Part shown: piece by piece, positions 23,993 through 62,860 of the stretch
Numbering within the stretch: the stretch's first letter is position 1
How the letters are laid out: the number at the start of each line of letters is the position of its first letter
Assembly: GCA_025617375.2 (NCBI GenBank)
Contig: JAMYGW020000017.1
Coordinates: 46,610-110,609, forward strand
Source of the DNA: Acarospora socialis
Lineage: Eukaryota; Ascomycota; Lecanoromycetes; Acarosporales; Acarosporaceae
Direction of reading: 5' to 3'
DNA length: 64,000 nucleotides
Program-made: the position numbers and the translations under genes
The notes under the pieces: model-generated
Databases searched by the model: none
Told to the model about the DNA's origin: nothing
The model's input: the letters and a program-made list of their open reading frames with translations, nothing else

Positions 23993-23999
23993 TGGAACG

Positions 24000-30791: not shown

Positions 30792-31409
30792 CTATTCTGT
30801 CTCCGCACCAAGATCGTTGCCGGCAGGGCATTTGAGATTGAAATGAGCGCTGCAGCCGGCGCCTTCACCGCTGTCGACAGCTTCCTCCGCATCATTGTGA
30901 GTGTCTTCATTCGATATTGAATTTGCCGACGCGGAGGCTGAAACGCTAGTTAAGAGACGATGTATTGGTGCAGAACTCAATTTGAAAAAATCGCAGAGAA
31001 CTCGTGCTTCTTCAAATGAGATGTAGGTCCCGCGAATTCTTGAGTCGCCCTGCTGTATCGTCTCTTTAGTGATTCCGGGATTCTTCGCGAAAAAGACGGC
31101 TAGCTTGTCTCGTGATATGTTGCCGGCTTTCAGGAGCTGCGTTACATTAATGATTTGTTTAGATGGCTGGTAGATGATAACGCAGTCGCCACACCATAGG
31201 CCTGCAAATCCATTCTGCAACTCCTTTTCAGACGGACGTCGGTCAACAACCAGCAAGTAGTTCTCTTCCCGATTCGGGGGAGCAAGAGATGAGTATGAGA
31301 GCAAGGGGCTTAGGTCATCCTCAAGACCCACTGCCTGACACAGATATACGCCATCTGAAAACGGCACCCAGTAATTCGGTCGGCCTTACACATAAATTTC
31401 TTCAGTCAT
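30792..31409 (-). pseudogene. APSES/KilA-N DNA-binding domain gene with one nonsense codon
   Basis: ATG at 31409 gives MTEEIYV, then an in-frame TAA at 31386-31388, then GRPNYWVPFSDGVYLCQAVG and a long open frame. The KilA-N/APSES core is DCVIIYQPSKQIINVTQLLK, AGNISRDKLAVFFAKNPGIT, KETIQQGDSRIRGTYISFEE and ARVLCDFFKLSSAPIHRLL. APSES proteins are fungal transcription factors (Mbp1/Swi4/StuA type) that bind DNA through this winged-helix-like fold. The C-terminus is Ser/Asp/Glu-rich and short, with no ankyrin repeats. No later in-frame ATG precedes the domain, so the stop probably inactivates the gene unless it is read through or spliced. It is the last CpG-containing gene before the mutated block. 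Confidence 0.7.
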
Positions 31410-31439
31410 CTTTCTGTACAAAAACATGTTAGTTTTGAT

Positions 31440-32900
31440 ATATTGCTTGAATTGAAGATTGAAGAATGTCTACATTGTATATGTCAAGCTTGTTGCATGA
31501 ATTCAATATTGCTTCAAGATTACAGAATAATTCATGATTGACTTCTGTCTTTTTATAATATTGAGTCAGTTTTTTTTACATGCATCAATAGCATTCAGCA
31601 ACTTGAGATTGAAGAATAATTTAAATTTCTCAATTGCTTTGTTCTGATTTTTGAGATGATTAAACAGATTGTTATATGTAAATCACAGCTTGTGAATTAT
31701 TAACTCACTGATAACATTCATGATCACTGTTCAATTTTTGAAGTATTTTAGAAGATGCAGTATGTACTTGATATGCTGTCACTCTCTTGTATTATATTTG
31801 AGAAACTTCATTCTACTTGTTGTTCTAGTCAGATGCTCTATTCATTGAGAGAATTCAGTTTGTAGCTTATATGCTCTGTTTAGCATATCATAAAATGAGT
31901 TTCATTAAGTTCTCACATTCTCAATCATATCTCAAGAATTTGTCTTCTACAATTCTTTGAACAGCTTAAGTTACTGTGATGATGTTATGATTGCAATAGC
32001 AAGCATACAAATCTTCATCAATATGTTATTAACATAATGATGAACTGAAATAAAGCATTATAATAAAGCATCACAAAAGATTTACTGATCTTTTTCAGTA
32101 TGATATCAAAAAAGTAGTTTTTTTCAAATATGAACTTTTGTAGCTCACTGTCATTGAATATAGTTGTAAAATGATCATTTTTGACATCAACTTTCAAATA
32201 TGTAAATAGCTGATTGACTGCAAGCTGAATAACATGTGTCATGCAATTCATAATTTTAGTTTCATCACTTCAGATTATATTCTTTGCACTTAAAAGTTGA
32301 CTGAGATGATATCTTAGAGTATAGTTGTTGAAAGCATTGTCTGCTGTGATCACTAACAATCAATGTGTCAAATTTCACTTCTTCAACATTTTAAGAACAT
32401 ACTCAGTTAAATTTTCATCACTATATTGATTCTTTAACTCTCTGAACACTAAAAGAATCTTTTTGTACTTTTACTCAGTGTTGATGAAGTATGCAGTGAT
32501 GTTTAAAAATGCAAGATAATTGAGACTGATTCATTCATCAAATATAATAAAGACTTTAATCTACAGCTTAAGTGCTGCAAGAATTTCTTTTTGAACTTTT
32601 ACAGCACAATGTTTAAGAAATTGTGCAACTTTTGTTTGATTTGAGATCTTAATTTCAGCACAACATATTCAGATGAACTTTCAAAACTCTAAATACTCAA
32701 TCATACAAAAGAACAGATTGAGTGCTATAATGAATCAGAGAATCTACTGATCAAAGACTTCAAGAGTAAAGTCAAGTGATCTAATAATAATCTTTTGAGC
32801 TGTCTGCACAGATTTGAACATTATATTAAAGCATTAAAATTGAAAAACATAGCATACAGTGATATTCAGTGCTGTAAAGATTGAAATCTGTTTTTCTAAT
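31440..32900 (-). pseudogene. hAT-superfamily transposase, heavily C-to-T mutated
   Basis: In minus orientation (32370 to 32018) the text reads LLVITADNAFNNYTLRYHLS, then SAKNIIWSDETKIMNCMTHV (with W encoded by TGA) and IQLAVNQLFTYLKVDVKNDH. The DN.SNN and C.AH..QL segments are hallmark hAT motifs. CpG is absent throughout and Trp codons appear as TGA, matching the RIP-like signature. Element ends and target-site duplication were not found, so the span is approximate. Confidence 0.7.
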
Positions 32901-32929
32901 GATTTTCTTGCATTCTGACAACTGTTGTT

Positions 32930-33267
32930 TGTTATGATCAAGTCTGAAGAAGCTTAAAACAGACTGACAGATACATCTGTGAAGTGTATGACAGCAGAGA
33001 CTGTCAAGAATCAGTCACATAATGACACAATGAGCACAACAGATGTGCTCAGTATGTCAGAAATGAGAAGCACAACAGATGTGCTGAGCATGTGTCAAGA
33101 CTCTTGTTCTATATAATAGAATCAATTTTATTATGAAATCAATCATGTTCAGATTCTGTTATCTAGTTACTCATTATTAACTATCATTAATCTACATCTT
33201 TGAATCTTTATATCAAAGAGCATAAACCCTAGCCCTATAATCAAGGAACCTCAGTTGAAATGTAACA
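32930..33267 (+). repeat. 5' LTR of chromovirus G1
   Basis: 338 bp with TATA-like CTATATAATAGAATC near 33112. The same size as the 3' copy; differences are mostly transitions at CpG and CpC, with some at CpA or CpT. Confidence 0.92.
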
Positions 33268-33329
33268 CTTTGAACACTCTTACAATATAAAGAATGTCAT
33301 TCAAAGAATCAATCTCAGACAGTGTGTCA

Positions 33330-36300
33330 CAGAGCATCAAACTGACAAAAGTTGTCAATATCAATCATGAAATACTCAAAGTCAAGACATCAGAGAACTT
33401 CATGAATGATTGATGAAATCTGAGACAATTTCTTGCTCAACTCAATCTTTATGTTGACTTTAATATCAAGAAGTTTTCAAGCAACATCAACAAAATCTTG
33501 TTCACCATATTCTATCTGAAGAACACAGCATTCAACTGAGTCAAATTGAAGCTCAGAGAGTTTCTAGTCATGAATCTCAAAAAGAAAGAAGTCAATATTT
33601 CATATATCAGTCATTGAGAATGATTCAAAAAAGAACTCAGAGTAATCTTCAGAATAGTAAATAAAAAGTGTGCAGTGAAACAGAAGATTCACACATTACA
33701 GCAAGAAGAATCTGCAGTTAAGTATGTGACAGAGTTTCAATGACTTGCAATACTTATGCAATGAAACACAGATCAGTTAACATCAACATACTATTGAGAC
33801 TTGAAGAAATCTATCAAGAACAAAATTGCACAAGACAAAAGATCAGATGATCTTCAAGAATTAATTAACTGAATGATCATGATAAATAATTGTCAGTAAG
33901 AATGTCAGATGAAACAAAAGAATTACTGACATCAGAAATGAATAGATAGAGCTCATGAGAATAATCAAAGACAATGATACTCAAACTTCATGAATCTCAA
34001 CATGACAGAGCAAGATCAATCTTCAATACAAAAATCAGAAGAAGCATCACATGAAATGAAACAGTTCTCAAAAGAGAAGTTGTTGAGCAATCAGAAAATG
34101 CAAAAGTGCTATAACTGCAATACTATCAAACATCTTGTGAGAAACTGCAGAAAGCTCAAAAAAGAAAGAATAAAAGCTGTGATTGTGACTAGAAGAATAG
34201 TGCATGACAATCTTAGTTGAATGACTTGCTATGATGACATGTGTTGAATGCACATGAGCAGCAAGAATGAAGTCAAATACTATTCAAAGAAGTCATGTCA
34301 GAAGCAAGAAACTTATGATATCACAGAATGATTTAAATCAGACAACACTGCAAAAAAAGAACTGTGTGTTCTAGAGACTGAGATTGAAGAGATTGATACT
34401 TATGATATTCAGATAGAAGAAAACTACAGTGATAGCATCTGAATTGTCTTGAATTCAAATGCAAATTAAGAGAAAGTTGACAACTGAGAAGTTGACATGA
34501 GACTTAAGAAAGATTATGAGCACCCAGAAAATCAATGTCAAATGTTGAAGAAAGAACTGCTTAGACAAGAAAAACAGAATTTAAAAGAAGAGATCACTGT
34601 CTTGAAGCAAGAACAGAATAAGACACAAGACATTGATTAAGTTGTCAAGAGAGTCATTGAATAAACACAGAGAATCATCAAGAATCATCTCAAATCTTCA
34701 TTCACAATAATTCAATCAGCAGTCAGAGAAGAATTCAGACTTGACATAAGTCTATTTTTAGAAATGAAGACTGAAAATAAAGAACTATGAATCTTTCAAG
34801 AAGATTATATTTCATCAGAGTTTCTACACAAAGTGAAAGCACTTTGAAATCTGTTGCAGAAAGAATATGATAGATATGATCTGAAAATACATGATAAACA
34901 GTATGTCACAAACAAAAGTGAGAAGCACACAAATCTGATGCTCATCAAACAAGAATTACAATGATTCAGAGATCTATGAAGAAGAGCACAAGAGAATGCA
35001 GAGAAGTCAAAAAACTGCAAGCTTTCTCAATGAGACTAGAGATCAAGAAACTATTGAAGTCTCACAGACAACACAAAGATAAGATCATGATAAAGATGAA
35101 TTTTAAATAAGATGATCAGCTGTCAGAGACAGTACATGCTTTAGTTGACTTTGAAGTGTTGAACAACTACATTTCACAAAAGCTAGTTCAAGACACAGAA
35201 CTAAAAATCATAAAAACATCATATTCAGCAAGAGTGCTGATGATGAACAGAAGCTATAAAGATATGATGAAACAGACTCACATCATGATTAACATTTCAG
35301 AGAGATGTCAGAACATGATGTTAGATGTCATGAAATTCATGAAGTACAATGTCATACTGAGTATGTCATACTTAAGAAACTATAATCTCAAGATTGACTA
35401 AATTACAAAAGAAATTTATACAACAGAGCACACATATGAGATTCTGAGACAATCAGAGATGTGTTTGTCAGAACACAAGTCATAAGATTATGAGATACTG
35501 TTATTGAATGAAAAGCAATCTAAGTGAATGTCACTATACTCAATGAGTGAGAATCAACTCAAGAAAGTTCAAGACTACCTTGATAAGAATCTCAAGAGAG
35601 AATTCATAAAATCATCAAAATCATCAGCAGAATATTCAATTCTATTTATATTAAAACTGAATGATCAGAAGCAACTGTGTGTCAATTATCAATAGTTGAA
35701 TGAGATAATCAGACAAGATAGTTATTTCTTATTCTTGATTGAAGAATTGCAGAATCAACTTAACTGAACTAAGTGATTTATCAGCATAGATCTCAAAAAC
35801 ATCTATCATCAGATTAGAATGAAAGAAGATGAAAAATGAAAGACAGTGTTCTGAATGAGATATGAACACTACAAATATACTGTCATGTCATTTGAATTAA
35901 AAAACACATCAGTCATCTTTCAGAGACTTATCAACAACATGTTGAGAGAATATCTCAATGATTTTGTGATCACATACTTAAATAACATATTGATCTACTC
36001 AGAAGATCTGTCAGAGCACTGAAGACATGTGAAAAAGATATTAGTGAAACTAAAAGAGAGATCATTGTATGTGAAAGAGTCAAAGAGCAGATTCAAAACT
36101 CAAGAAATTAAGTTTTTAGAATATGTGATTCAATCAGAACACATCAAGAAGAATTCAGCAAAGACAACAGCAGTAAAACAATGATTTATGCTCATAAAAA
36201 TCAAGAAAGTACAGATCTTTCTAGAGTTGATGAACTATTATTGAGAGTTCATATCAAACTACTCATGAGTAGCAGAACCTCTCACACACTTAATGTGAAA

Positions 36301-38130
36301 GAATGAGAAATAGCACTGAGATGAAAAACAGAAACAAGCATTCAACATATTGAAGAAAAGTCTCAGTGAAACAGCTCATCTCACAATATCTCAGACAGCA
36401 TGCAAAAAAATATTAGAAATTAACACATTCAATTTTGCAGTTAAAGCATGCTTATATTAGATCAAAAATGAAACACAGAGACCCATAGCATTTCAATTTA
36501 GAAAGTTATCAGAATTTAAGAAAAGATATGAGATTCATGACAAAGAACTTCTTACAATAGTAGAGACACTGCAAAAATGAAGATCTTATCTTGCAGACAT
36601 TAAGAAGTCTATACAGATCTATATGAATCACAAGAATCTGAGAAACTTTGCAATGATCAAACAGTTAAACTACAGACAGATTTGCTGAACTGAATCATTA
36701 GCAGACTTCAAATTTCAGATTCATTACAAGAAAAATAATGAGAATGATGAAGCAGATGTTTTAAGCAGATGACTCAATCATGAAGAAGTGAAACAAGTTC
36801 ACATCAGAATTCTGAAGAAAGATAACAAAGAAATTCTAATCAGAGAATTAGCAATGATGTTTAAGATAGAGAATGCTTTCTTGACAAACAAAGAACTCAT
36901 ATGAGAATGTCATATGAACAGAACTCATGAACACTTAGAAGTTAAATGCACTGAGAATCTTGTGCAAAGAAAACACAACATTGATGATCTTAGAAGATGA
37001 ATCACTGAGATGATTGTCAAGTGCAATTTATGTTGATGAAACAAGATCAACTGAGATAAACAATACAATGAAGTAACACAAATTGACATGTTGAGCAGAT
37101 CATGAAAGTCAGTTATCATGAACTTCATTATGAAGTTGTCATCATCAAAAGATTCAACATGAAGAATAAGATTCAACAGCATATTGACTATAGTGAATAG
37201 ATTGATCAAGTACACAATGTTCATTTCATTCAAAGAAACTGCAATGACATCAGTATTGATGTACATCATACTGCAAGAATTAATTAGCAATTACAGATTA
37301 CTGAAAGAGTTCATCACTAACAGAGACAAGCTATTTATGAGCAAGTTCTGAGAAATGCTCACAGTCAAACTCAGAATAAAGCACAAGATGTTAACAGTGT
37401 ATCATTCTCAGACAGATGAACAAAGTGAGTGAATGAATCAGACAGTGAAAACATACTTGAGACATTACATCAACAAAAGTCAGAACAACTGAGTGCAACT
37501 GCTATTAACAGCACAGTTTGCATACAACAATGCAAGAAGTGAGATCACAGAAGAGACATCATTCTATATGAACTATGAGTACAATTCAGAGATATGATGA
37601 GATTCACAAGAACACAAATCACAGAGTCAGAAAGCAATTCTGAACATCACACAAATGAAGAAACTGCACAGAGATCTGACAAACAGAATTCAGCAGCAAT
37701 CAGACAAGAAGAAGTCTGAAGAATCATTTTAAATTGAAGAAAGAATATATTTTTGCACAGACAATGTAAAGATGAAGAGAAAAAGCAAGAAATTGAACAG
37801 CAAGAGCATAGAATCATTTGAGATAAAGAGAAGCATCAAGAAAATAAGCTATGAACTGAACTTATTCAAGACAATATGAATACACTCAATATTTCATGCA
37901 TTCATGCTACAGTGTTGTGATCAATCAATATCACTTTAAACAATTGAGATGTCAGTTGAACCTGACAAAGAATATGAAGTTGAGAATATTTTAGAAAAGA
38001 GAACAATTAGTGAGAAAGCTCACTATCTCATGAAATGAAAGAAATACAATATCTCAGAAAACATCTGAGAATCTAAGAAGAATCTTAAGAACTGCACAAG
38101 AACACTTCAACATTTTGAGAAAAGAATAAT
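33330..38130 (+). pseudogene. gag-pol: Chromovirus G1 Gag-Pol, disabled by TGG-to-TGA changes
   Basis: The Gag zinc knuckle CYNCNTIKHLVRNC (C-x2-C-x4-H-x4-C) is at 34107-34148. A protease-like segment VHALVDFEVLNNYIS is near 35130-35175, with the D-S/T-G site changed to DFE. RT runs about 35600-36180: conserved MRYEHYKYTVM...FELKN (ancestral MPFGL), and the catalytic YxDD box near 35974 reads YLNN. RNase H is about 36300-36720 (FQFRKLSEFKKRYEIHDKEL). Integrase is about 36880-37650, including a degraded HHCC region (ECHMNRTHEHLEV...CNLC). The C-terminal chromodomain (37978-38125) gives YEVENILEKRTISEKAHYLM, K-stop-KKYNISENI-stop-ESKKNLKNC, where both stops are TGA in place of Trp. Chromodomains of this class target integration to heterochromatin. 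Confidence 0.9.
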
Positions 38131-38168
38131 ATAGAATTTCAGAAATTCAGAGACATCAAGTTGATCAG

Positions 38169-38582
38169 TTATGATATGTCTTGAGAGAGAGAATCATTCT
38201 TCACATCATTATTATCATCATCAAGCTCAGAAGCAACACAGTGAGTCTTGAGAAGAGAAATCATTTTATTATGTTTGATCTGTTGTAGAAGACAACTGAG
38301 TTTTGCATTGAGTCTCACAACAGTGATGAAGTGCTCAGCACATTCTTTCATCATCAGCTTCAGCTCTGACTTCAACTTTTTGTGTATATGATTCAGAAAC
38401 TTCAGAAAGATGTCAACACAGAGATATTCACAGCAAGTACACTCAGCACACTTAAAATGATTGATCATCACAATACAGAAAGTATTGAGAAATAGACAAT
38501 GATCACAGAAAATGAAAGATGAATTTCTGTGAAGATTGATGAGCTTTGAGAGAGCAAGATGATTCTTGAATTTTGAAAGCAT
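38169..38582 (-). CDS. Antisense accessory ORF of chromovirus G1, 137 codons
   Basis: An open frame antisense to the element, between the chromodomain and the 3' LTR; the start codon at 38582 is ATG. The sequence is MLSKFKNHLALSKLINLHRN, a Cys motif FKCAECTCCEYLCVDIF (C-x2-C-x6-C, likely CAEC.RRG.PCV before mutation), a Lys/Glu-rich helix (NHIHKKLKSELKLMMKE) and an acidic end (SELDDDNNDVKNDSLS). This matches my recollection of a Cys-motif plus coiled-coil protein family common in fungal repeats. The same position in the third chromovirus copy carries a related minus-strand frame (62041-62226), and similar sequence is present at 60300-60600. It may stay open only because it has few Trp or CGA codons. 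Function unknown. Confidence 0.55.
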   Translation of the reverse strand: MLSKFKNHLALSKLINLHRNSSFIFCDHCLFLNTFCIVMINHFKCAECTCCEYLCVDIFLKFLNHIHKKLKSELKLMMKECAEHFITVVRLNAKLSCLLQQIKHNKMISLLKTHCVASELDDDNNDVKNDSLSQDIS

Positions 38583-38663
38583 AACAATGATGAATCAAAG
38601 AACTAATATATACTCTCACTTAAATAGACCCTAAAGAACTAGCACCTAGAAAGAGAAAGATGA

Positions 38664-39001
38664 TGTTATGATCAAGCTCAAAGAGACTTAAAATGAATTG
38701 ACAGATACATCTGTGAGATGTATGACAGCAGAGACTGTCAAGAATCAGTCACATAACAACACAACAAGCACAACAGATGTACTTGATGTGTCAGAAAAAA
38801 GAAGCATAACAGATGTGCTGAGCATGCATCAAGACTCTTGTTCTATATAATAGAATCAATTCTTTTATGAAATCAATCATGTTCAAATTCTGTTATCTAG
38901 TTACTCATTACTAGCTATCATTTATCTACATCTTTGAATCTTTATATCAAAGAGCACAAACTCTAGCTCTATAACTGAGAAATCTCAGTTGAGACATAAC
39001 A
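38664..39001 (+). repeat. 3' LTR of chromovirus G1
   Basis: 338 bp, preceded by the polypurine tract at about 38648-38663 and followed by target-site duplication TTGTT. Confidence 0.92.
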
Positions 39002-39006
39002 TTGTT

Positions 39007-40250
39007 CTTCAGATGACATCTTATGATTGTTGTTTCATCATCATTTAATATTGATTAATTCATGATATTATGATACTTAACACACATCCCATCAGATCTT
39101 TCATCATGTTTGCTGACTACTTCAGCAAAAGATTTTCAGACTTTTGCTGAGCAACTTGAACTGTTTTACAGCATTGAAGCATGCTTTTTGACTTTCACAA
39201 CTGTGTCTTGACTTCATATAATTGTCTTTCATCACTCTTAAAATTCTTGCTTCATTGCAGAAATTCAAAGAACATACTCTGAGTTGAATGCATTTGTTAA
39301 AATTAAAGAGAATGATTGTATCTGTTGAGATAATCAAACTCTATCAGTGAAAGCACTCATAAAAGAACTTTCTGAGTTACTTGTCAGCTGACTGAAAAAA
39401 GAACTGTATAAAGACATGATGATAATTTCTCAGAGTAAACTGATTGAGTAGATGATGTTTTGTTGTAGTATAACAATAGTAAGATATGAAGAGTGTTGTG
39501 AAACTTAGTAAGTTTTTTCTCATATGAATTTAGTCATGTGATCACAAAATTTACACAAGTAAAAGAGTCAAAGACAGAATTCATATGATTTATACATAAT
39601 AAAATCAATGAGAAAGCTACTCTGCATAATATGTTATTGAGTTAACAATAATTAATTATTGAAATAAATAATTTAATGTAAAATTCTATACTACAACTTT
39701 ATACTATGTCATGTGATAATGTTAGACACAATATTTTAAAGAGAAATAACTTATTATTAACAATTCATATTCATAATCAGATAATTGATCATTAAGAATA
39801 TAAAAATAAACAATTTAACAGACATCTCTGATTATTCTCTTACTATCTTACAGTTTTAGTCATCACAAAACTGTGTATTACTTTACTACTCACTTTTCTT
39901 TTCATCACTGTTCTTATCTGTGATACTCTCATCATTCTTATTATTCTCAGCTTCATCTTTCTTCTTTTTATCATTTTTCACATCAGCAATTGCTGCATCA
40001 ATAATAAACTCATCAATTGAATCATCATTCAAGAACTTCTCATCTTCAAACTTCATTACATAAACTTCATCAGCATTCTCAACAACACTCTTTTTCTTCT
40101 TTTCTTCTTGATCAACTACAGACTCTTGAATGTATTTAGTCACTGTTAAAAGTACAAAATATTATAACTGAGTGATATAATACTCACAGATGATCATAAT
40201 CAGCAATATGCTCAGAATCAAGAACATCATTACAAAAAAGACACATTGTC
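39007..40250. other. CpG-free degraded DNA with an acidic open frame
   Basis: Carries a minus-strand open stretch at 39886-40143 that is highly acidic and Lys-rich (EKKKKSVVENADEVYVMK, then KKKDEAENNKNDESITD). The first codon is GTG, so it is probably part of a longer degraded protein. Another minus-strand fragment (39122-39337) has no recognisable domain. The element identity is unknown. Confidence 0.35.
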
Positions 40251-41239
40251 TGTGAGACTGGTCTTGGCAGTTACATGATAATGGACTTAAGAGTTGGGAT
40301 GCATAGATAGAATTGTTGCTAGTCTTTGCAAAAGAGAAAGTGTGCACTTTTATCCCTTCACAAAGGCTGACTTACTAAGCATACTAGTTACACAAGGTCT
40401 CACAAGGAGGTTCTAACCCTCACAGACCAAAGTGAACTTACAGTTGTTTCTCTCTCTTATGTGCTGTGTCCTTGTGACATCTATGTTGCTGACTCTCTGT
40501 TGAAAAAACTTCTCTGTGAGAAGAAAAACAGTGAGTAAGACTAGGGTGGCCGTCGGGTCGGGCCAAAATTTCGAGGCTGACTTGACCCGCGGGTCGGGTC
40601 GGGTCAGAACTTCTGACCCGGATTGACCCACGGGTCAATATATATACTATATTTAGCCCTAGAGCCTCATTTTGAGCCTCAATCTGAAGTTTTTGTTAGA
40701 AATATGCGTTAGATCTACTATATTTAGTATGTACGGGTCACCAAGACTGACCCGACCCGACCCTGACCCGGCCCGCGGGTCGGGTCAGGGTCAGAAATCT
40801 AGGCCTGACTTGACCCGCGGGTCGGGTCGGGTCAGAAATTCTTGGCCCGACCCGACCCGACGGCCACCCTAAGTAAGACTTCTTCAGTATCAAAAATCTC
40901 ATGAAAAAAACAAATACTGAGATAGTTCTTCAGCCTGAACTAATGTGCTACATTCTAGATGTTTTTACAAGCTCAACCTAATGCTTTGCAGTTCAGTCTC
41001 AGTTTTCTGTGAGCTTGTATTGATGCTTTGCAAGCACATTTTGATGATTCATGAGTCATTCTTAGTTTCTTGCAATCAAGTTCTCTGTTTTTGTGATCAT
41101 CCTGCTCTGCAGATTCTGTTTAATGTTTTGTGAGCAAGCTTCAGTGTTTTGTGATGCTTCATGAGTCTTCTTTGATGCTTTGTGTCTTTGTGTGTTCTGT
41201 CTCTCTTTTGTGTCATTGTGATATTTGTTATGTTCAACA
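40251..41239 (-). repeat. Left arm of a 651-bp inverted repeat pair (LTR-like)
   Basis: From TGTGAGACTGG to ...TGTTCAACA. After subtracting the 330-bp MITE plus its 8-bp duplication, the arm is 651 bp. It is the reverse complement of 43974-44625 (652 bp) over its whole length. Both arms read TGTTGAACATAACAAATAT...CAGTCTCACA in their own orientation, i.e. TG...CA like LTRs. No matching target-site duplication was found at either arm. Confidence 0.75.
40542..40871. mobile_element. hAT-type MITE with 8-bp target-site duplication
   Basis: 330 bp, terminal inverted repeats TAGGGTGGCCGTCGGGTCGG / its complement, and a perfect 8-bp duplication AGTAAGAC at 40534-40541 and 40872-40879. The interior is built of GGGTC/GACCC words in both orientations around an AT-rich core. 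Eight-bp duplication and TAGGG-type ends fit the hAT superfamily. No coding capacity. It is rich in CpG and GG/CC, in sharp contrast to its CpG-free surroundings, so it inserted after, or escaped, the mutation process. Confidence 0.9.
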
Positions 41240-41344
41240 TTGCACAGTAAAAGGAGCAGGTGAGAGTGACTGAAGCAGATTTTATATATAGACTCTGTGT
41301 ACTCACTTTCAGTGTCTCACAGATATTCATTTATGTGTTGTGGG

Positions 41345-44735: not shown

Positions 44736-44773
44736 TAATGAGATCAGCATCAATGATATTATAGATGACATTT

Positions 44774-52630: not shown

Positions 52631-52639
52631 TGTCTTGCA

Positions 52640-53955
52640 TAAAATTATTAAGATCATCAGCAGAATACTTAATTCTGTTTGTATTAAAGAAAAATGACAA
52701 CAAATGACTATGTGTTGATTACAGACAACTCATTGAGATAACTTACTGAAACAATTATTCTTTATTATTAATAGAAGAGTTGCAAGATCAATTAGACAAG
52801 ACTAAGTGATTCACAAACTTAGATCTTAAGAAGATCTATTACTGAGTAAAAATGAAGAAGAACAAAGAATGAAAAATAACATTCTAAACAAGATACAGAC
52901 ACTATAAGTACACAGTCATGCTGTTTGAACTAAAGAATACTTCAGTCATCTTTCAAAGCTTGATCAATAACACATTAAGAGAATATCTCAATGATTTCAT
53001 AATCACATATCTTAATAACATTCTGATATATTCAGAAAATTTTAAGAAGTACTGTGAACATGTACACAAAATATTAATAAGACTCAATGAGAAAGCTCTG
53101 TACATGAAAAAGTTAAAAAGCAGATTCAAGATCAAGAAAACTAAGTTTCTAGACTATGTAATTTGATTTGAACAAATTAAGAAATCTTTAAAGAAAACAA
53201 AAGCAGTCAAAAACTAATTAACATTAAAGTGAATCAAGAAAGTACAGATTTTTCTGAAATTGATGAACTATTATTGAAAGTTTGTATCAAACTATGTGAA
53301 GATTGCAGAATCACTAATGTATTTGATATGCAAAAGTGAAAAATAACACTGAGAAAAGAATCAAGAAAATGCATTTCACACATTAAAGAAAAGTCTTAGT
53401 GAAACAGTGCACCTGAGAATACTCAGTTCAGCATGCAAGAAAATACTGAAAATTAATGCTTTAGATTTTACAGTAAATGCATGTTTATATTAGATTAAAG
53501 ATGAACAACAAAAATTCATAACATATTGTTGAAATTAGAAGACTCTTTAGAAGTTCAACTCTATTCAGTCTAGTGTTGAAATCTTCTGTGTCATGTGATA
53601 TTGCTTAGTCATCATGCACAAAAGTTATTCTTTGTGTATTCTAGTCATCTAGATAATCAAGACATCTAATATTAAGCAATAGAAATGTTTCAAAATTCAA
53701 CACATATTAATTCAGAAAACTATCAAAAAAAAATATAAGATTCATGACAAGAAACTTCTTGCAATAGTGAAAGCACTGCAAAAATGAAAATCTTATCTTA
53801 CAAAAACAAGCAAATCAATTCAGATCTATACAGATCACAAAAATCTAAGAGACTTTACAATCACAAAACAACTCAATCAACAACAGATTTATTGAACAGA
53901 GCAGTTGGCAGATTATGAATTACGGATTTATTATAAAAGAATAACAAGAGTAAAG
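52640..53955 (+). pseudogene. pol: G2 reverse transcriptase and RNase H segment
   Basis: RT: LINNTLREYLNDFIITYLNN followed by ILIYSENFKKYCEHVHKI at 52960-53070, with the YLDD box changed to YLNN as in G1. RNase H is split by a 176-bp solo LTR: ...KFITY before it and SENYQKKKYKIHDKKLLAIV-type text after it (53708 onward). All stops fit TGG-to-TGA. Confidence 0.8.
53527..53702. mobile_element. Solo LTR of family C
   Basis: 176 bp with inverted ends TGTTGAAATT...AAATTCAACA and a perfect duplication CATAT at 53522-53526 and 53703-53707. It splits the G2 RNase H. Related fragments lie at 17200-17400 and 62385-62460. Orientation not decided. Confidence 0.88.
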
Positions 53956-54825
53956 AAACTGTTGAAATGGTTGATGTTATTGTTATTAAACTAAATGCTA
54001 TGTGCATTTTCTATGTGATACACTAAGACAAGCAAGCAGCTTGACTCAATTTTTAACACACTTTCTGAGTCTAGACATCATCACTGTTGTTATCAAAAGA
54101 GGTAAGAAAGGTAAAAACAGACTAATGATAGTCTTATTGATGTATCATTCATCAGCATTTGTTCATCAGTGTATCATTTGTCAGCATTATTCACTAGAGT
54201 ATATTCTTCAGTGTCATTTACCACATTGTTCACTGATGTCTGTTCACTGCATTATTCACTAACTAAAAAGTATGTGTCACAGTCTCAGCAGAGCTTACAT
54301 GAACTTTCATAGAATGTTACTGTCTCAGCAGAACTTATGTGAACTTTTGAGTGTTTGTTCTTATTTCATTTTGTAACACTCTGTTGAGTCAAGGGCAACA
54401 AGATTTGTTTTGTTTTGTAACTGTAATTGAGTCAAGAGCAACAAGATTTGTTCTGTTTTGTAATCATAGATGTGTCAAGAGCAGTAAGGCAGTGAGATAA
54501 AAGAACATCAAAGATATGTGTCACAGTCTCAGCAAAGCTTATGTGAACTTCTGTAGAGAGAATGTCAACAAGATATGTGTCTGAATAGATCTTGACTTTG
54601 TGATTCTACTACATAGAGACTTTCATGTCTGACTGCAAGACTGTCATGTCTTTGCATCTAGAACAGCAACAGCAAGATAGATAGAATGATAGCTAGGGCA
54701 TCTTGTAGTCTTGAATGATAGAACTTATCATAGTCTACTAATGAAACAACAAACAAGCTGATTTGGGTGTGGATTACATGGAATTTGGGCTCATAACCTG
54801 TTGAAATGGTTGATGTTGTTGTTAT

Positions 54826-55149
54826 TGTTAGAAATATAACTCATGATAGCTTTGGCTAAGTGTGGTGCCCACTTTTGACAGGTTATGAGCCCAAGTTAGT
54901 GCAGTGGTTAGTCAAGGGACTTGCATAAAAATTTGGCTTGGGTTCGCCCCCTACTTCCCTATTGGCCGCTCAAGGTGTGGAGAGTAAGTTCAAAGGTTGC
55001 AGGTTTGACACACATTGTGCACACAAGTCCTGTCTGCACAAAGCTGAATCTCAGCGACATAAGTGCATTGCCGGCGATCACGGGTTAGGCGAAGTGTTAG
55101 AAATATAACCCACGATAGCTTTGGCTAAGTGTGGTGCCCACTTTTGACA
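54826..55149 (+). mobile_element. Miniature LTR element (SMART-like), 324 bp, 55-bp LTRs
   Basis: LTRs 54826-54880 and 55095-55149 (TGTTAGAAATATAAC...CACTTTTGACA), 55 bp each with only two differences (one CpC, one CpG transition). Perfect duplication GTTAT at 54821-54825 and 55150-55154, lying inside the LTR of the TRIM. The half-tRNA primer site GGTTATGAGCCC follows the first LTR. The interior has an A-box-like TTAGTGCAGTGGTTAG and a B-box-like GGGTTCGCCCCC about 40 nt downstream (54893-54955). CpG and GG/CC are intact. Confidence 0.9.
54893..54962 (+). other. tRNA-like core with A-box and B-box motifs
   Basis: AAGTTAGTGCAGTGGTTAGT, then AAGGGACTTGCAT and TGGGTTCGCCCCCTA. The T-arm does not pair well and no discriminator/CCA-compatible acceptor stem is evident, so this is not called a tRNA gene. 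SINE-like Pol III promoter is the alternative reading. Confidence 0.4.
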
Positions 55150-55231
55150 GTTATTAAACTAAATGCTGTGTGCATTTTCTATGTAATACACTAAGACAGG
55201 CAAGCAACTAGGCTCAATCTTCAACAGAAAC

Positions 55232-56088: not shown

Positions 56089-57781
56089 TGTTATGATTAT
56101 GCCCTAGTCTATTTGCTTGCGCTGTTGCTTAGACCTTATATAACTTTCACACAATAGCTAGAGTAGAACAACAACAGACTTACACATATTCACTTGACTT
56201 AGATAGTCACAGCTCTAACTCACATACTATTTACTATATGGCATTGAGCCCAATAGATCTCTACTGAGAACTTAACTTCTCATTGTGAGTATTGCACTCC
56301 TGACAAATGGTAGCACCAATGGTTCAATTTCATACCTTCACATCCTCATAAACCTTCTTATCCACCTCAGCATTCAACCCTTTCACTAGACTCATCAAAC
56401 ACCTTCATTATGACCTTCTACAACAACAACAATAGTCAGTATGATATCTATGTCATTAACAGTCACTTCACATACAACCCATACTATGATGGCTACTATA
56501 ATAACTACACCACACCTTTGCAAGCAGGCACGCCGACCAGTTATGCTCAAGATACTACACAAACCTCATCTATTTGTGAGTCTCCTAAGCCCACATCAAT
56601 GTCATTCTAACTAAGTGACAATGACATCAAGACTATTGCAAAACAAGCAGTTGACAAGGTCTTTCATTGATTCAACAACCTACATTGTCAATTCAAGCCT
56701 ATAGAGCATACATCTATGCCTGAGTCTCTCACTGAACCTTCATGTTAGTCTATATTAATGATCTCAATGCAGTCTATTCAGACACTCATTCAGACCACTA
56801 CATCTATGTCACTTCATATCAATATAGTTGTTGTCAAATTCTTCACCAATCATGTCATTGAGTTCTTCACCAATCACATCACCAAATTCTTCATCAAGCA
56901 AATCACTGTTGCTCAAGACACATACACACATATGCAGTATCAACAAGTCTGATTCAGACTAAATTCACAGCAAATTCAGCTTCTACCACCTGACACATGT
57001 CACACATGCATACAGCTTGTTTTGTCTTCAATTCTGGTGGAAAACACTGCAAATTTGTCACTATACAAATTCATCATATTCTATGAATCAACCTCCTCAA
57101 TTTTGACCTTCAAACCCACCATATAATCCAGCAATGATGTTGAATTCATCACAAAATCAGTCTTCATACCATTATGAACAAGACCTACAGCAACTGCATG
57201 AACTGTGAAATCATCTTAATCACTATGCTTCAGCCACCATACAAAATGAGTCTGTCAACAAGTCATGAGTCTACAACACCACCACCAATGATACAGAGGA
57301 CATCGCCAACAAGGTCTATGAGGCTTGCTATTATGATTCACCTAATGATGCATACAAATCAGTCACAAAATGCTCTTACTGTCAATTCCACTTCAATTCA
57401 TACAACAAGCTCACAGAGCATATGCAAAGAGAAGAACATGAGGCTTAGGAATTCACATAGTAGTTAGTATGGGGTTCTCAAATCGCTGTGGTATTTGCTT
57501 TGGTGAATAGGTATTTGTGAGTTTTGCAATGGGGGCATTGCATTTTTGTCTCGTGTGGGCGTATTGTTATGGTTATGCCCTAGCCTATTCACTTGTGCTG
57601 TCACTTAGACCTTATATAACTTCCACACAATAGCTAGAGTAGAACAACAACAGACTTACACATATCCACTTGACTTAGATAGCCACAGCTCTAACTCACA
57701 TACTATTTACTATATGGCATTGAGCTCAATAGATCTCTACTGAGAACTTAACTTCTTGTTGTGAGTATTGCACTTCTGACA
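56089..57781 (+). mobile_element. Non-autonomous LTR element (family A) with C2H2 finger, complete
   Basis: Two 217-bp LTRs (56089-56305, 57565-57781) and a perfect target-site duplication AAGAC at 56084-56088 and 57782-57786. The primer site TGGTAGCACC at 56308-56317 corresponds to the Ty1-type site TGGTAGCGCC complementary to the 3' end of initiator tRNA-Met. The interior is 1.26 kb with no pol. The 14 LTR substitutions fall at 11 sites, 7 CpC-type and 4 CpG-type. Confidence 0.95.
56410..57449 (+). pseudogene. Gag-like protein with C-terminal C2H2 zinc finger
   Basis: One frame from an ATG at 56410 gives MTFYNNNNSQYDIYVINSHF, TYNPYYDGYYNNYTTPLQAG and, past a TAA at 56608, LSDNDIKTIAKQAVDKVFH with TGA for Trp. 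It then passes through Ser/Thr-rich text. In a second frame the C-terminus reads DTEDIANKVYEACYYDSPND, then AYKSVTKCSYCQFHFNSYNK and LTEHMQREEHEA-stop, a C-x2-C-x12-H-x4-H zinc finger (57371-57436). The Asn/Tyr-rich N-terminus plus nucleic-acid-binding finger suggests a structural Gag-like protein; that role is inferred. Frame breaks near 56755-57170 show it is now inactive. Confidence 0.6.
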
Positions 57782-57959
57782 AAGACTCAAATGATTGAGC
57801 AAAACAAGCATTCTCAACAGCTTACTACAAGTCAACAAGATGAATAAGCATCTACTACTGCCTTCATAAAAGAAAAACATCTAATACATCTTTCTTTATC
57901 TTATTCATTTATTATATTCTGATTCACTAATTATATTTTTATTATTATTTCTTATACTA

Positions 57960-60140
57960 TGTGTCAACTGTCATCACAAACTACATCATGAACTTCAACA
58001 ACTTCTTCACAAAGTGATGATTCATTTCAGTTCTCAGCCAAAAGAACTGCAATCAATGATTCACTCTCATGAAGAGATGACTAATAAATTAAGATCTATG
58101 ATTTATCATTGAAATTTTCATCATCAACACATCTGTCAGCAACTTTTTCTTTTTTCTAAGCAATCTTGACTTTGAAAGTCAGAAGATTGACATTAAAATT
58201 CTGTACTGACTTACTATCTATATCAGTGCAGACAATCAAGAATATCTGACAGACAAGATCAATTGCATTTAATACTACAAATATCTTCTCATCACTCACA
58301 AGACTGTTGAGTCAAAAAGATCAGTTGACTCAATCATGATTAAGTCAATCATAAAGTTAAGTAAGTTGACTGCAGTCAACTCACATCACAATAAGTCAAG
58401 ATCTAAGTTTAAACACAAGAAGAGCAAGCATAAGACTTTTGATGCTGAGATCAAGAAAAACAGCAACTCATTCTCATTAGAATCTGATATGAAGAAGAAA
58501 ATTGATGATGAGATTGCTGACTTATTCAAAAAAGCTGTTTATAAAATGTTCAGCTTTAAATGAATTGCTGACTTTGAATCTCATTACACATAACTGATCA
58601 ACTTCAACTCTTCAGTGATTCTCTAATATGCATAAGATGTCAATGAATTAAAGTTAAAGAAAAAAAACTATACTCTTACTAGTGTGAAGTAGTAGTCATG
58701 CAAAATGAATCTGAAAACTTTATTAATCTGAGTTTCACACTTTATGTGTCTGAACTCAGAGTCAATCTTCTGTCAGAAAAACAAATGTGTGAGATGAAAT
58801 TACATGATCATTTTGATCAACACAGTCTCTATATGCAGAATAAGTATGATAAAATCATGATAGAAGTGTTTGAGTAAGAAGATGTCTACATAATTAAATA
58901 TATTGCAAAGAGTCTAAAAGAATTTGTTCTAATTACTGTCATACACATACTGTTCAATTCAGAAGTTACTTTTCTGATCATAGTACTGAATGCAAACTCA
59001 CAGATTCAGATTCATGAGTCTTAAGTGCAGACTGAGTCATCAAGCTTCACTGACACTGCATTCTTGAGTGAAAGAATCAAGATCTACAAACTATGACATC
59101 AATGATTTGCTCATATTGATTCTGCAAAGCTTCATGATCTTTATAAGATTATGATTCTTGAGAAGTCAATTTTCATTGCTGAGAACAAAGAGAACATATG
59201 TAAGATGTGTGTCATCATCAAGTTTGTCAATCAGCAAAAATACACTGTGAGTGAGCAAAAGATCAACATTCTTGTCTTAATTTTCATTGATATATGCAGT
59301 TCTCTATCTCTATCATTTACTGAATATCAGTACTTGCTGAAGATTGTAAACAACTATTTGTAAAAGACATAAATCATATTGCTGAAGTAACATAACAATG
59401 TTCTGCAGAAACTAAGAATAACAGTTAAAGATTGAACTTCAAAGTGATGCAAAGATTCTGATCATACAAAACAATAATGTCACAGAGTTTAGAATCATTC
59501 TTGATAATTAATGCAGATCTTTTAACATTATATTACAATATACTGTGTTTTATATGTTCATTCAGAATGATGTTGTTAAAAGAGTAATTTGAATCACTGA
59601 GAACTCAGTGTACACAATGATCAAGAAAACTGAACTTTCAATAAAGTTCTAAGTAGAGACAGCACAAACAGATGTCTATCTTTACAATTGAGCAGCAATT
59701 GATCTCTTGATCAACAGCAAACAAACAACTTTGAAGAAGATCTTCATCAGTAAAGTCATTTATTGATTACATTTATATGTGAGAATGCAAGTTGCTACAT
59801 CTATATTGATTTCAAGTTCTGTCAGAGAACAGACAGAATAAGTTCATGAATTGAGAATGAGTGAAAGTCTTTATGAACTATGTAAAAAAAATCACAAAAC
59901 AGTATCTACTTTGAGTTTCAGATCTTAAGTGAATCATCAGAAGTTATGCTGTTAAGTTTGCTGAGAATGAGAAAAAAGACAGCAATAATCTTGAGCTGCA
60001 AAGACAGACATCAAACATTTTGTCAGAGTGAAAGTCAATTAAATAATCATAAAAGAATGCAGTCACTGCAGAGCTCACAGCATCTACAGCTTCACTCACA
60101 GTCACTGAGCAAACTTATAGACTCAGATCTGTGAGTTCAG
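57960..60140 (+). pseudogene. gag-pol: Copia family E Gag-Pol remnant
   Basis: Gag-like start MCQLSSQTTS near 57958 with many TGA stops. A basic segment around 58336-58560 includes SRSKFKHKKSKHKTFDAEIK. Integrase: LHDLYKIMILEKSIFIAENK, ENICKMCVIIKFVNQQKYTV and IDICSSLSLSFTEYQYLLKI (about 59120-59350), which matches the copia layout of a zinc-binding N-terminus followed by the catalytic D in a D(I/V)-x-GP-like segment (here mutated). Further integrase text includes MIKKTELSIKF and VETAQTDVYLYN, ending near 60140. RT and RNase H are missing. Confidence 0.7.
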
Positions 60141-60149
60141 ACAGCAAAA

Positions 60150-60300
60150 AGACATTTTAGAAAAGAGAATAATTAGTGAGAAAGTTAAATATCTCATCAA
60201 ATAAAAAAATTATAATATCTCAGAGAATATCTGAAAACTCAAAGAGAATCTCAAGAACTGTGTAAGAACACTTCAACATTTTGAGAAAAAACAACAATAG
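60150..60300 (+). pseudogene. G2 chromodomain
   Basis: DILEKRIISEKVKYLIK, stop, KNYNISENI, stop, KLKENLKNCVRTLQHFEK; a close match to the G1 chromodomain. The stops sit at the two conserved Trp positions (one TAA, one TGA). Confidence 0.8.
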
Positions 60301-60662
60301 AATCTCAGAAGAATAAAGACATATAAGTTAATAAATTATTTTATATTAGAAGAATTTTCTTCATTCTTCATCTTATTATTATCACTATTAAGTTTAGCAA
60401 CAAGACAGTCAGTCTTCTGTAAAGCACAGCAATCTGTTTGATTCAGAATTCACTTTGATCATGATTTTATTACATAACAATCAATATTGTGACTGACACA
60501 ATAGTCACAAGAAAATGAAGTAAGCACATCATTGAGTTGAATTTTCTTTGCAATTCTTAGATGATTGAAATTTTTAGAAAGCATTGTTGCTGATGATGAC
60601 TTAATTATATACTCTTGCTTAAATAAACTCTAGAGAACTAGCATCTGAGAAGAGAAAAATAG

Positions 60663-61011
60663 TGTTATGATTATATCTCAAGAGATATGATGTAGACTGA
60701 CTTGTACACTGTATGAACATTTAAAAAAGAAGCTATCAAGAAAAGTTACATAATATCTCATCATGCTCAATGATGAGCTGAGTGAGCAGACTCAATGAAT
60801 TGCATAAGTGAGCTGACTTAATAAACTTGATGATAAGATCAGCAAGCAAGCTCAGTATATAGTCACAGTTATTTTTCTTATGAAAGAAATCATGTTCAAC
60901 TTAAATAACAATTTAAAGATTAAAGATCAGAATCATTTCAGACCAGCTTTTATATTAATAAGCACAACTCTTAGTTCTAATACAAGAAAAATCTTCTGTG
61001 AGAACATTACA
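60663..61011 (+). repeat. 3' LTR of chromovirus G2
   Basis: 349 bp, TGTTATGATT to GAACATTACA, family D motifs present (TTTTTCTTATG, TTCAACTTAAATAACAATTT, TTATATTAATAAGCAC). Preceded by a purine-rich tract AGAAGAGAAAAATAG. Confidence 0.75.
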
Positions 61012-62380
61012 CTATGAACTTCATTATGAAGTTATCATCATCAAAAAATTCAACATGAGAGATAAAATTCAACAGTATATTAATTATGGTGAATAGATTA
61101 ATTAAATACACAATGTTCATTTCATTCAAAGAAATTACAACAGCATCAGAACTAATGTACACAATATTGTATGAATTGATTAGCAATTATAAACTATCAA
61201 AGAAGTTTATTATCAATCAAGATAAACTGTTTACAAACAAATTTTAAGAAATATTCATAGCAGAACTCAGAATAAAACACAAGATATTGATGATGTATCA
61301 TTTACAGATGAATGAATTAAACAGTAAAAATATACTTAAGACATTACATAAATCAAAACAACTGAGTACAACTATTGATAATAACACAGTTTATGTACAA
61401 TAACACAAAGAACAAAATCACAAAAGAGACATGTTTCTATGTGAACTATAACTATAATTCAAAAATATAACAAGATTCACAGATACACAGGTCACAAAGT
61501 CAGAAAGTAATACTGAATATTGTATCATTAAAAAAACTGCATCAAGATCTAACAGAATGAATCAGACAGCAGATAAAATAAACAGTAAAGATAAGATCAT
61601 TTGAAGAGAAAAAAAAGATATACTTAAAAATAAACAACATATATACAAAGAAAAAAGTAAGAAACTGAAAAACAAACATTTTAAACTATTCAAGATCAAG
61701 AAAAACATCAAGAAATAAACTATAAGTTAAATTTACTCAGAGAAACAAAAATACATCTGATATTTTATGTATTCATACTACAGCATTGCAATCAATTCAT
61801 GTCACTTCAAATCACTAAAATGTCTGTCAAATTTAATAAAGAATACAAAATTAAAATCATTTTAGAAAGAAGAATGATTAAAGAAAAAACTTACTATCTC
61901 ATCAAATAAAAAGATTATGATATCTCAGAAAATATCTGAGAACTCAAGAAAAATTTTAAGAACTATGTGAAAACACTTACAACATTTTGAGAAAAGAAGT
62001 CAATATTAATTTAGTAAAATGAAGATATTGAATTCACAAATTACAACATTATTGAAGAATCTTTATTCTCTGTTTTATCATTATCACTATTAAGTTTAGC
62101 AGCAAGACAGTTTATTTTTTGTGTAGCACAATGATTCATTTGATTCTGAGTTTTTTGAAAACTTATTATTTTGACAGTAAAAACATCAAGAATCACATTT
62201 GCATCATTTATTTTCTTTTGAAGCAAAATATGAGTTTTGTTGAGAAGCTTTCATGATATTGCAACACATAAATGACTGTGATGAGTATAATGACTTAATT
62301 ATATACTCTTGCTTAAATAGATCTAGAGAACTAACATTTAAAAAGAAAACTAGTGTTGTAATTATATTCTGAGAGAAATA
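61012..62380 (+). mobile_element. Third chromovirus (G3), 3' part only
   Basis: Begins in the integrase at the position equivalent to G1 37118 (AACTTCATTATGAAGTTATC) and follows G1 colinearly through integrase. The chromodomain near 61850-61995 reads YKIKIILERRMIKEKTYYLI with a stop for Trp. The antisense ORF region 62041-62226 and the start of an LTR (TGTTGTAATTATATTC, 62354) follow. The 5' two-thirds are absent here. Strongly mutated. Confidence 0.75.
62041..62226 (-). pseudogene. Antisense accessory ORF of G3 (fragment)
   Basis: Frame MLQKKINDANVILDVFTVKI continuing to NHCATQKINCLAAKLNSDND, positionally equivalent to the C-terminal helical/acidic part of the antisense ORF in G1 (38169-38582). 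Confidence 0.45.
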
Positions 62381-62384
62381 TGTC

Positions 62385-62460
62385 ACATGATACTGCTTAG
62401 TCATTACTCACAAAAGTTATCCTTTGTGTATTCTAGTGTTCTAATGATTATACATAAAAT
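62385..62460. repeat. Fragment of LTR family C
   Basis: GTCACATGATACTGCTTAGTCAT and TTTGTGTATTCTAGTGTTCTA match the middle of the solo LTR at 53527-53702. It interrupts the G3 3' LTR. Confidence 0.6.
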
Positions 62461-62860
62461 GATTTGACAATGTTTACAGACTATTTTATTGTTCTGAAGA
62501 CTAATCAAAGCTCAGAGAACTAGCAGCTTAATTTGAAGATGATTATGATAGTACCTCTGCAGAATCTAAGAAGTCAACTCAATTTTCTCTATGACATGCA
62601 GTGGGTGGGGCATGTACTTGACTACTTGCATTTGACTTCACTTTCACAACATAGAGGCAACTTTATCAGCTGGCCTACACATTGCAATTCAACATCATCT
62701 AAAAATGACAAACAATGGTGGGTTCAAAGGAGAGGAAGCCTCCACCACAATTCATAAGATCCAAAGTCTCTCTTCTTTCTGATCCATCAATGTTTGCATT
62801 CTTTGCATCTCTGATCATACCTTTGTGACTGATTTAGCTTGATGCATCTAGACAGTCAAT
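62461..62860. other. Transition from mutated block to normal DNA
   Basis: CpG-poor with GG/CC present. No gene supported. Confidence 0.35.

What the first reader, a model, noticed from the sequence alone, without database searches (positions are those of the whole stretch)
31383..62800. RIP-like C-to-T mutation aimed at CpC and CpG instead of CpA
Across the nested block CpG is almost absent and CpC/GpG is depleted, while CpA/TpG and CpT/ApG stay abundant. Conserved Trp codons become TGA (GpG to GpA), not TAG; Gly GGN becomes GAN, Pro CCN becomes TCN, and Ala-Pro becomes Thr-Ser (RT segment near 35880-35990). Classical RIP in Neurospora and most Pezizomycotina favours CpA to TpA. CpG decay alone could be methyl-C deamination, but the CpC loss is not explained by CpG methylation. 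If confirmed, this is a different target specificity for a RIP- or MIP-like deamination system. Caveat: G1 LTRs and the 53960 TRIM LTRs also show some CpA/CpT changes.
Basis: partly seen in the sequence, partly recalled or inferred. Interest (0 to 1): 0.88.

Follow-up and report, generated by a model that had tools for sequence, protein, structure and literature searches.

The report
Transposon mutator hitting CpC and CpG
In this fungus, probably a lichen-former, old transposons have lost nearly every C that stood before a C or a G, a target choice different from the fungal defence mutators that I found described, and one that the usual detection index does not see.

Summary
The block holds stretches of up to 2,905 bp without a single CC, GG or CG but with hundreds of CA/TG and CT/AG. 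The flank is normal (CpC 0.95, CpG 0.74 of expectation) and the left edge is sharp. Copies of three repeat families of the same 31-Mb genome show C-to-T change decided by the 3' base. In young LINE copies, private C-to-T changes hit 29 of 177 CpC but 5 of 623 CpA and 4 of 482 CpT. Against the least-mutated copy of an LTR family, 4 of 91 CpG survive, mostly after one hit. The order is CpG >= CpC >> CpA, CpT; CpA and CpT change late. Both strands are hit; the 5' base matters little. Stops in decayed reverse transcriptases are 84% TGA. The genome encodes RID-like and DIM-2-like methyltransferases; nearest named relative: Pleopsidium flavum, Acarosporales. Best reading: a RIP-type defence with switched target specificity. 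Which enzyme, and whether mutation is direct or follows methylation, is not shown. Nine paper searches found no CpC-led repeat decay. TpA-based RIP indices score the block as un-RIPped.

The parts
31386..40200 (.). CpS-saturated (CpC/GpG- and CpG-depleted) block around a Gypsy-type LTR retrotransposon; sharp left junction at about 31,386
   Evidence: (CpC+GpG)/(TpC+GpA)=0.013, 2CpG/(TpG+CpA)=0.000
32930..33229 (+). left long terminal repeat (part) of the Gypsy-type element
   Evidence: D1, 89% to 38664-38963; CpC 4/6, CpA 19/68, CpT 14/55 differ, 3 transversions
38664..38963 (+). right long terminal repeat (part) of the same element
   Evidence: D1
35675..36124 (+). decayed Gypsy reverse transcriptase, 5 TGA and 1 TAG; Trp to TGA, Ala-Pro to Thr-Ser, YxDD motif now YxNN
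40331..44543 (.). younger element with inverted terminal repeats, only partly depleted (CpC 0.5-0.8 in 40-44 kb)
   Evidence: (I2-I6)
44544..53900 (.). CpS-saturated repeat DNA
53982..55226 (.). short element with terminal repeats (TRIM-like), part of its inside still CpC-containing
   Evidence: (D13)
56089..57783 (.). short LTR element (LTRs 94% alike), member of a family with at least two little-mutated copies elsewhere (L064, L074)
   Evidence: (D6)
58038..60943 (.). longest run without any CC, GG or CG (2,905 bp) although it holds 470 CA/TG and 409 CT/AG
62500..62870 (.). gradual right edge: CpG absent, CpC present
2600..7600 (.). second, milder CpS-depleted block outside the given coordinates
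8000..31300 (.). gene-bearing flank used as control, near-normal dinucleotides

Best explanation
This is a repeat-directed C-to-T hypermutation system of the RIP kind whose target is a cytosine followed by C or G (CpS) instead of CpA. Shown: the change is C:G to T:A, on both strands, in repeated DNA, decided by the 3' neighbour, fastest at CpG (mostly one hit per CpG site), next at CpC, slow at CpA/CpT, and it has acted recently on copies still about 99.5% identical. Inferred: a RID-clade cytosine methyltransferase, alone or with the DIM-2-clade enzyme, recognises repeated DNA and drives C to T at CpS, silencing elements through TGA stops (TGG to TGA, CGA to TGA) and loss of catalytic residues.
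For: Context: L014 to L040, CpC 75/181, CpG 4/13, CpA 24/613, CpT 21/471; trinucleotide table shows no comparable 5' effect. Private changes in 13 young LINE copies: CpC 29/177, CpG 1/12, CpA 5/623, CpT 4/482; CpC vs CpA p=1.5e-15. L064 to L063: CpC 73/179, CpG 85/181, CpA 24/224, CpT 7/186; reverse direction CpC 3/83. CpG fates in that pair, 91 sites: TG 50, CA 27, CG 4, TA 4, other 6. Transitions to transversions: 250:4 between two copies of the inverted-repeat element; 226:6 over 12 young LINE pairs, 11 of 12 with no transversion. Repeats only: sharp junction, six host stretches normal. Stops in RT matches: 418 TGA, 21 TAG, 60 TAA in 150 rows listed. Genes: RID-like and DIM-2-like, catalytic motifs present.
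Against: No experiment links an enzyme to the mutation. In other pairs the transition excess is far smaller: L064 against five copies 228:53, 175:47, 263:94, 311:96, 128:17; LINE L014 against older copies from 38:1 to 162:32. In the full set of 26 LINE copies, private changes are 96 C-to-T and 80 others. No strand runs in 7 LINE copies tested, so no sign of processive single-strand action; regional clustering only in L027. Copy-number dependence and timing were not tested, and some multicopy elements (L013; the copia-like stretch at 16-18.6 kb) are hardly mutated. CpA and CpT also change in saturated copies (0.32 of sites each in the inverted-repeat family), and in the RT comparison with a distant copy CpT was 28/63. 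The RID shows no gross change; the only oddity noticed is one catalytic-loop residue. Young LINE copies hold few CpG, so CpG rates rest on the LTR family.
Confidence: 0.7

Rival explanations
1. Methylation with passive decay (MIP-like): a DIM-2-like or other enzyme methylates CpG and CpC in silenced repeats, and methylated C then deaminates slowly over generations. No dedicated mutator exists.
For: CpG is the fastest site, changes look independent along six of seven copies tested, no strand runs. Most older pairs have only a moderate transition excess. Z. tritici Dim2 methylates CG, then CA, then CC, hardly CT (PMC8016269, passages). The young LINE copies are CpG-poor as if long exposed.
Against: Transition to transversion counts of 250:4 and 226:6 and complete loss over kilobases look faster than ordinary 5mC decay, though this is a judgement, not a clock. 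In Z. tritici the preferred methylation site CG was not mutated at high rates. It would still need a CpC-plus-CpG methyltransferase that spares CpA and CpT.
Confidence: 0.22
2. An AID/APOBEC-like DNA deaminase edits retroelement cDNA or genomic DNA.
For: CC-containing targets are known for some such enzymes (recalled).
Against: The mutated C is the 5' C of CpC (decided by the 3' base), both strands are hit about equally, an element with inverted terminal repeats is hit too, and CpG is hit. APOBEC_N gives no match over its cut-off in the genome (best E 0.016, 34 of 170 positions); only this one deaminase family was searched.
Confidence: 0.03
3. No mutator: inherited base composition, foreign origin or an assembly artefact.
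For: None found beyond the low GC of the block.
Against: Directional C-to-T change between copies of the same family, in three families on many contigs, with the excess at CpS; shuffles give CpS-free runs of at most 150 bp against 2,905.
Confidence: 0.01
4. Classical CpA-directed RIP seen in a distorted sample, for example after CpA sites were exhausted.
For: CpA changes are present in old copies.
Against: CpA is abundant (1.5 of expectation) and TpA low (0.58) in the block; the youngest copies, where nothing is exhausted, show CpC over CpA 20-fold.
Confidence: 0.01

Closest known systems
RIP of Neurospora crassa (RID, DIM-2)
   Same: C:G to T:A on both strands, repeats hit, genes spared, a RID-clade and a DIM-2-clade gene present
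   Different: N. crassa order is CpA>CpT>CpG>CpC (quoted in PMC5496416, passage); here CpG and CpC lead and CpA/CpT trail
RIP of Trichoderma reesei
   Same: a Pezizomycotina RIP with CpG among the main targets
   Different: CpA and CpG lead, CpC is last (PMC5496416, passage)
Species-specific C-to-T signatures linked to Dnmt1 classes (Amselem et al. 2015)
   Same: same type of evidence; the signature differs between species with RID
   Different: CpA, CpT and CpG signatures were reported; the term CpC does not occur in the main text (PMC4352252, passages and sections 8 and 13)
CpG or TpCpG hypermutation in Basidiomycota (Microbotryum, rusts, Rhizoctonia solani AG8)
   Same: CpG loss; in the AG8 table CpC is the most frequent single context (one per 214 bp against 370 for CpG), not commented on in the passages seen (PMC4014442)
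   Different: no RID class gene in the three CpG-only basidiomycetes of Amselem et al.; in AG8 genes are hit as well as repeats and the authors describe a CpG bias
Dim2-dependent mitotic mutation in Zymoseptoria tritici
   Same: DNMT-dependent C-to-T in repeats; Dim2 methylates CG, CA and CC
   Different: mutations are at CpA (PMC8016269, abstract and passages)
RIP in the lichen fungus Cladonia rangiformis
   Same: lichen fungus, RID and DIM-2 homologs, nested transposons with sharp borders, later inserts less mutated
   Different: the main text holds no CpA, CpC or CpG term, so target context was not given there; TE GC peak near 16% against 27-32% here (PMC12542154, passages)

Membership tests
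RIP (repeat-induced point mutation) | C:G to T:A transitions, few transversions | tested here: met
   250:4 and 226:6 in the cleanest comparisons; about 3:1 to 8:1 in many older pairs
RIP (repeat-induced point mutation) | confined to repeated DNA, single-copy genes spared | tested here: met
   a small sample of host DNA, whose single-copy status was not itself tested
RIP (repeat-induced point mutation) | triggered by duplication or homology | tested here: inconclusive
   the mutated elements searched are multicopy, but some multicopy elements are hardly mutated and no single-copy element was found as a contrast
RIP (repeat-induced point mutation) | premeiotic, heritable burst | not testable with these tools
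   needs crosses or progeny
RIP (repeat-induced point mutation) | RID gene present | tested here: met
   L010/L012; no BAH domain found and a short split methylase domain, as described for class I; not compared with a named RID sequence
RIP (repeat-induced point mutation) | dependence on RID | not testable with these tools
   no mutants
Classical CpA-type RIP | CpA to TpA dominant, TpA raised | tested here: not met
MIP (methylation induced premeiotically) | cytosine methylation of repeats without mutation | tested here: inconclusive
   mutation is massive, so not pure MIP; methylation itself could not be examined
AID/APOBEC editing | deaminase of the family encoded, 5'-base preference | tested here: not met
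   one deaminase family searched

The most novel reading that the evidence does not exclude
A RID-clade enzyme has switched its target from CpA to CpS, possibly through its catalytic loop: the residue after PPCQxxS is Trp in the host and in 5 of the 107 motif-bearing proteins among the best 120 relatives, all five among the seven closest. The defence then makes mostly TGA stops, is invisible to TpA-based RIP indices, and has selected a LINE family that keeps open frames while nearly free of CpG.
Probability: 0.35. Interest if true: 0.82.

Novelty: new variant of a known kind. Interest (0 to 1): 0.72.

Why it matters
CpC is the least-used RIP context in N. crassa and T. reesei, so this is close to an inversion of the known preference. 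It offers a natural pair of specificities for finding out what sets the RIP target, which is open because purified RID has shown no detectable activity in vitro (review PMC13297926, passage). It also warns that surveys using TpA/ApT and (CpA+TpG)/(ApC+GpT), as in PMC7882544, can call a heavily mutated genome RIP-free: the block scores a composite index of -0.95, lower than its gene-bearing flank at -0.51.

Tried and rejected
Rfam scan of the window: nothing over the gathering scores. Host naming: RID, DIM-2 and an RNA polymerase III subunit were searched; RID and DIM-2 gave named fungal relatives, none close enough to name the species, and the polymerase search placed it no better. My recollection of a published Acarospora genome of similar size could not be checked (one search listed one paper, not opened). 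Search for an APOBEC-type gene: one match under the cut-off. Strand-run and clustering tests on 7 LINE copies: negative except clustering in L027. Comparison of the 97%-alike copy at C17:863-3363 with the window was wanted to see which sites change after saturation; the DNA could not be fetched. A single-copy element as a contrast for homology dependence was looked for with the copia-like stretch at 16-18.6 kb and with L013; both have relatives. Structure prediction was not used: a model without DNA would not reveal specificity. The third methyltransferase-like gene (L011) was not followed up beyond a domain scan. One search aligned minus-strand loci without turning them, so its figures for those copies are void; one search replaces it. 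One search missed one row; one search replaces it.

Full report
What was checked. The window is G000:C17:46610-110609 of an unnamed 31.15-Mb genome in 38 contigs. Pooled over both strands, the block 31.4-62.8 kb has CpG at 0.07 and CpC at 0.27 of expectation against 0.74 and 0.95 in 8-31.3 kb, while CpA (1.53) and CpT (1.25) are high and TpA (0.58) is low. The depletion is near total in 32-40, 44-54 and 58-62 kb. Runs without any CC, GG or CG reach 2,905 bp and contain 470 CA/TG and 409 CT/AG; 20 mononucleotide shuffles of the block never exceeded 150 bp. The change at the left edge, about 31,386, takes place within a few bases. On the right it is gradual, with CpG lost and CpC kept between 62.5 and 62.87 kb.

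Host baseline. Six other host stretches held from searches (two around G-runs, counted once each, and the four methyltransferase loci, of which L010 and L012 overlap) have CpC 0.89-1.08 and CpG 0.86-0.99.

Family 1, a LINE. A reverse-transcriptase scan of the genome gave 151 matches, 150 of 435 candidates having been scored. I used the 29 loci of one LINE family (L014-L042). L015 holds RVT_1, endonuclease and RNase H domains. Against copy L014, twelve young copies (L015-L025, L028; at least 98.9% alike) sum to 226 transitions and 6 transversions, eleven of the twelve with no transversion; older copies run from 38:1 (L029) to 162:32 (L040), and three rearranged ones (L026, L034, L038) have 185-322 to 133-300. 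The context bias is the same in old copies: L040 CpC 75/181, CpG 4/13, CpA 24/613, CpT 21/471; L042 CpC 37/181, CpA 5/613. Pooled by trinucleotide over all 28 copies, CpC contexts run from 0.071 to 0.140, CpA from 0.008 to 0.016 and CpT from 0.009 to 0.029 whatever the 5' base; both strands are hit. Counted without L014 as reference, private changes in 13 young copies (L014-L025, L028) are 39 C-to-T among 53, at CpC 29/177, CpG 1/12, CpA 5/623, CpT 4/482 (CpC against CpA p=1.5e-15). In the set of 26 copies (L026, L034 and L038 left out as rearranged) the bias is weaker: 96 C-to-T and 80 other private changes, CpC 27/77, CpG 2/4, CpA 36/596, CpT 31/457; one old copy, L040, supplies 39 of the 96.

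Family 2, the short LTR element at 56.1-57.8 kb. L064 on C2 is the copy used as reference because it is little mutated; L074 is another. Of the 19 other loci I compared 15 (L079-L082 left out): pooled CpC 915/1577, CpG 767/1583, CpA 359/2028, CpT 195/1656. For a CpG cytosine the ceiling is near one half if a hit on one strand removes the site, so 0.48 is near saturation. Fates of 91 CpG sites, L064 to L063: TG 50, CA 27, CG 4, TA 4, other 6: mostly one hit and no further change, which by itself suggests that the resulting CpA/TpG is a poor target. The reverse direction, L063 to L064, is CpC 3/83, CpA 17/297, CpT 14/211, so forward CpA (24/224, p=0.048 against reverse) is about twice background. 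Transitions to transversions are 228:53 in this pair, and 175:47, 263:94, 311:96 and 128:17 against L065, L066, L067 and L070.

Family 3, the inverted-repeat element at 40.3-44.5 kb. Undirected comparison with 19 loci gives CpC 287/420, CpG 62/82, CpA 443/1391, CpT 258/809 of sites differing. Six copies are counted twice here because overlapping loci were returned, and two in the same way in the 56-kb family of that call. The longest pair, with L044, has 250 transitions and 4 transversions, so its CpA and CpT changes (99/306 and 75/261) are probably due to the mutator too; they come late, after CpS sites are gone. Hence a hierarchy, not an absolute rule. Terminal-repeat pairs inside the window agree on small numbers: CpC 4/6, 7/12 and 1/1 against CpA 19/68, 6/36 and 3/15.

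Coding effect. Stops inside the 150 listed RT matches are 418 TGA, 21 TAG, 60 TAA; 23 rows have none. CpA-type RIP would be expected to make mostly TAG and TAA. In the window's Gypsy RT, Trp to TGA, Gly to Glu, Pro to Ser, Ala-Pro to Thr-Ser and a YxNN in place of YxDD are visible by comparison with L013. In that comparison CpT also scored high (28/63) beside CpC 33/51, CpG 10/20 and CpA 16/66; with 31 transversions in about 450 bp the two are distant relatives, so I give it little weight.

Enzymes and host. PF00145 finds three genes in four matches: L009 is DIM-2-like (methylase over the cut-off, BAH just under it; best solved relative 9bap, E 1e-191; several named hits are annotated Dim-2), L010/L012 is RID-like (no BAH found, short methylase domain in two exons, SPPCQVFS and ENT motifs), and L011 is a divergent methylase with SC in place of PC at the catalytic motif (a DNMT6-type label would be recall only). 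The nearest named relatives are Pleopsidium flavum proteins (RID 51%, DIM-2 62%), which is Acarosporales, Lecanoromycetes. The host is thus probably a lichen-type fungus of that order or near it; the species is not known. Among the best 120 of 568 RID hits, 107 carry the PPCQxxS motif; the next residue is Trp in 5 (P0001, P0002, P0005, P0006, P0007) and in the host, Asp or Pro in 88. P0004, also close, has Pro. That this loop enters DNA at the flipped base in related enzymes is recalled, not tested.

Mechanism and rivals. The pattern demands a C-to-T process aimed at repeats that reads the 3' base. A RIP-type system with a changed target is the simplest account. CpG/CpC methylation with passive deamination remains possible: the transition excess in the youngest copies argues against it but is not a clock, and in most older pairs the excess is moderate. 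Copy number alone does not predict the load: L013 and the copia-like stretch at 16-18.6 kb have relatives in the genome yet keep CpC at 1.04 and about 0.92. No APOBEC_N match passes the cut-off, and both-strand action on different element types does not fit it.

What is in print. Nine searches addressed this in an open-access library; a tenth concerned the host. Horns 2012 is not held and Clutterbuck 2011 was not seen. Passages seen report CpA, CpT, CpG or TpCpG preferences and place CpC last in N. crassa and T. reesei. CpC passages in seven more papers gave no CpC-led repeat decay; in four of them the letters mean something else, one is a figure legend, one mentions CpC-to-TpT double changes beside classical CpA RIP, and one, R. 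solani AG8, tabulates CpC as the most frequent single SNP context without comment in the passages seen. Other listed papers that hold the term were not opened. I therefore call it a new variant of a known kind, with the reservation that unread papers may hold a case.

Noticed in passing
C1:2.65-2.80 Mb, C2:1.47-1.50, C4:1.99-2.00, C5:1.54-1.59, C6:0.65-0.69, C7:1.32-1.36, C8:0.205-0.24, C9:1.25-1.26, C10:0.19-0.265, C11:0.927-0.931, C12:0.15, C14:0.01-0.085: In the capped list, matches of the LINE type fall into about one cluster per large contig, as centromeric elements would; copies without a stop in the RT lie mainly in the C1, C14 and C10 clusters.
   Followed up: no
L014-L025, L028: LINE copies without stops in the RT are nearly free of CpG (0.04-0.07) yet keep CpC (about 0.8), as if the family had adapted to loss of CpG.
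   Followed up: partly
window 2600-7600: A second CpS-depleted block, milder than the given one.
   Followed up: partly
window 62500-62870: CpG-free but CpC-containing strip between the block and normal DNA; either weak leakage that takes CpG first or a young repeat.
   Followed up: no
G000:C17:863-3363 and window 34000-36500: Two Gypsy copies on the same contig are 97% identical although the next copies are 82%, suggesting a recent segmental duplication.
   Followed up: no
L011 (C8:614409): Third methylase-like gene with SC instead of PC at the catalytic motif, family not settled.
   Followed up: no
window 1262-1361: 100 N, an assembly gap.
   Followed up: no
window 17963-18493: Copia-type gag frame with ordinary dinucleotides; the stretch around it has partial matches of 71-93% elsewhere in the genome.
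   Followed up: partly
L013 (C14:277266-280748): Gypsy-type stretch with one stop in its RT and normal CpC (1.04), although about 40 relatives of 70-81% identity exist.
   Followed up: partly
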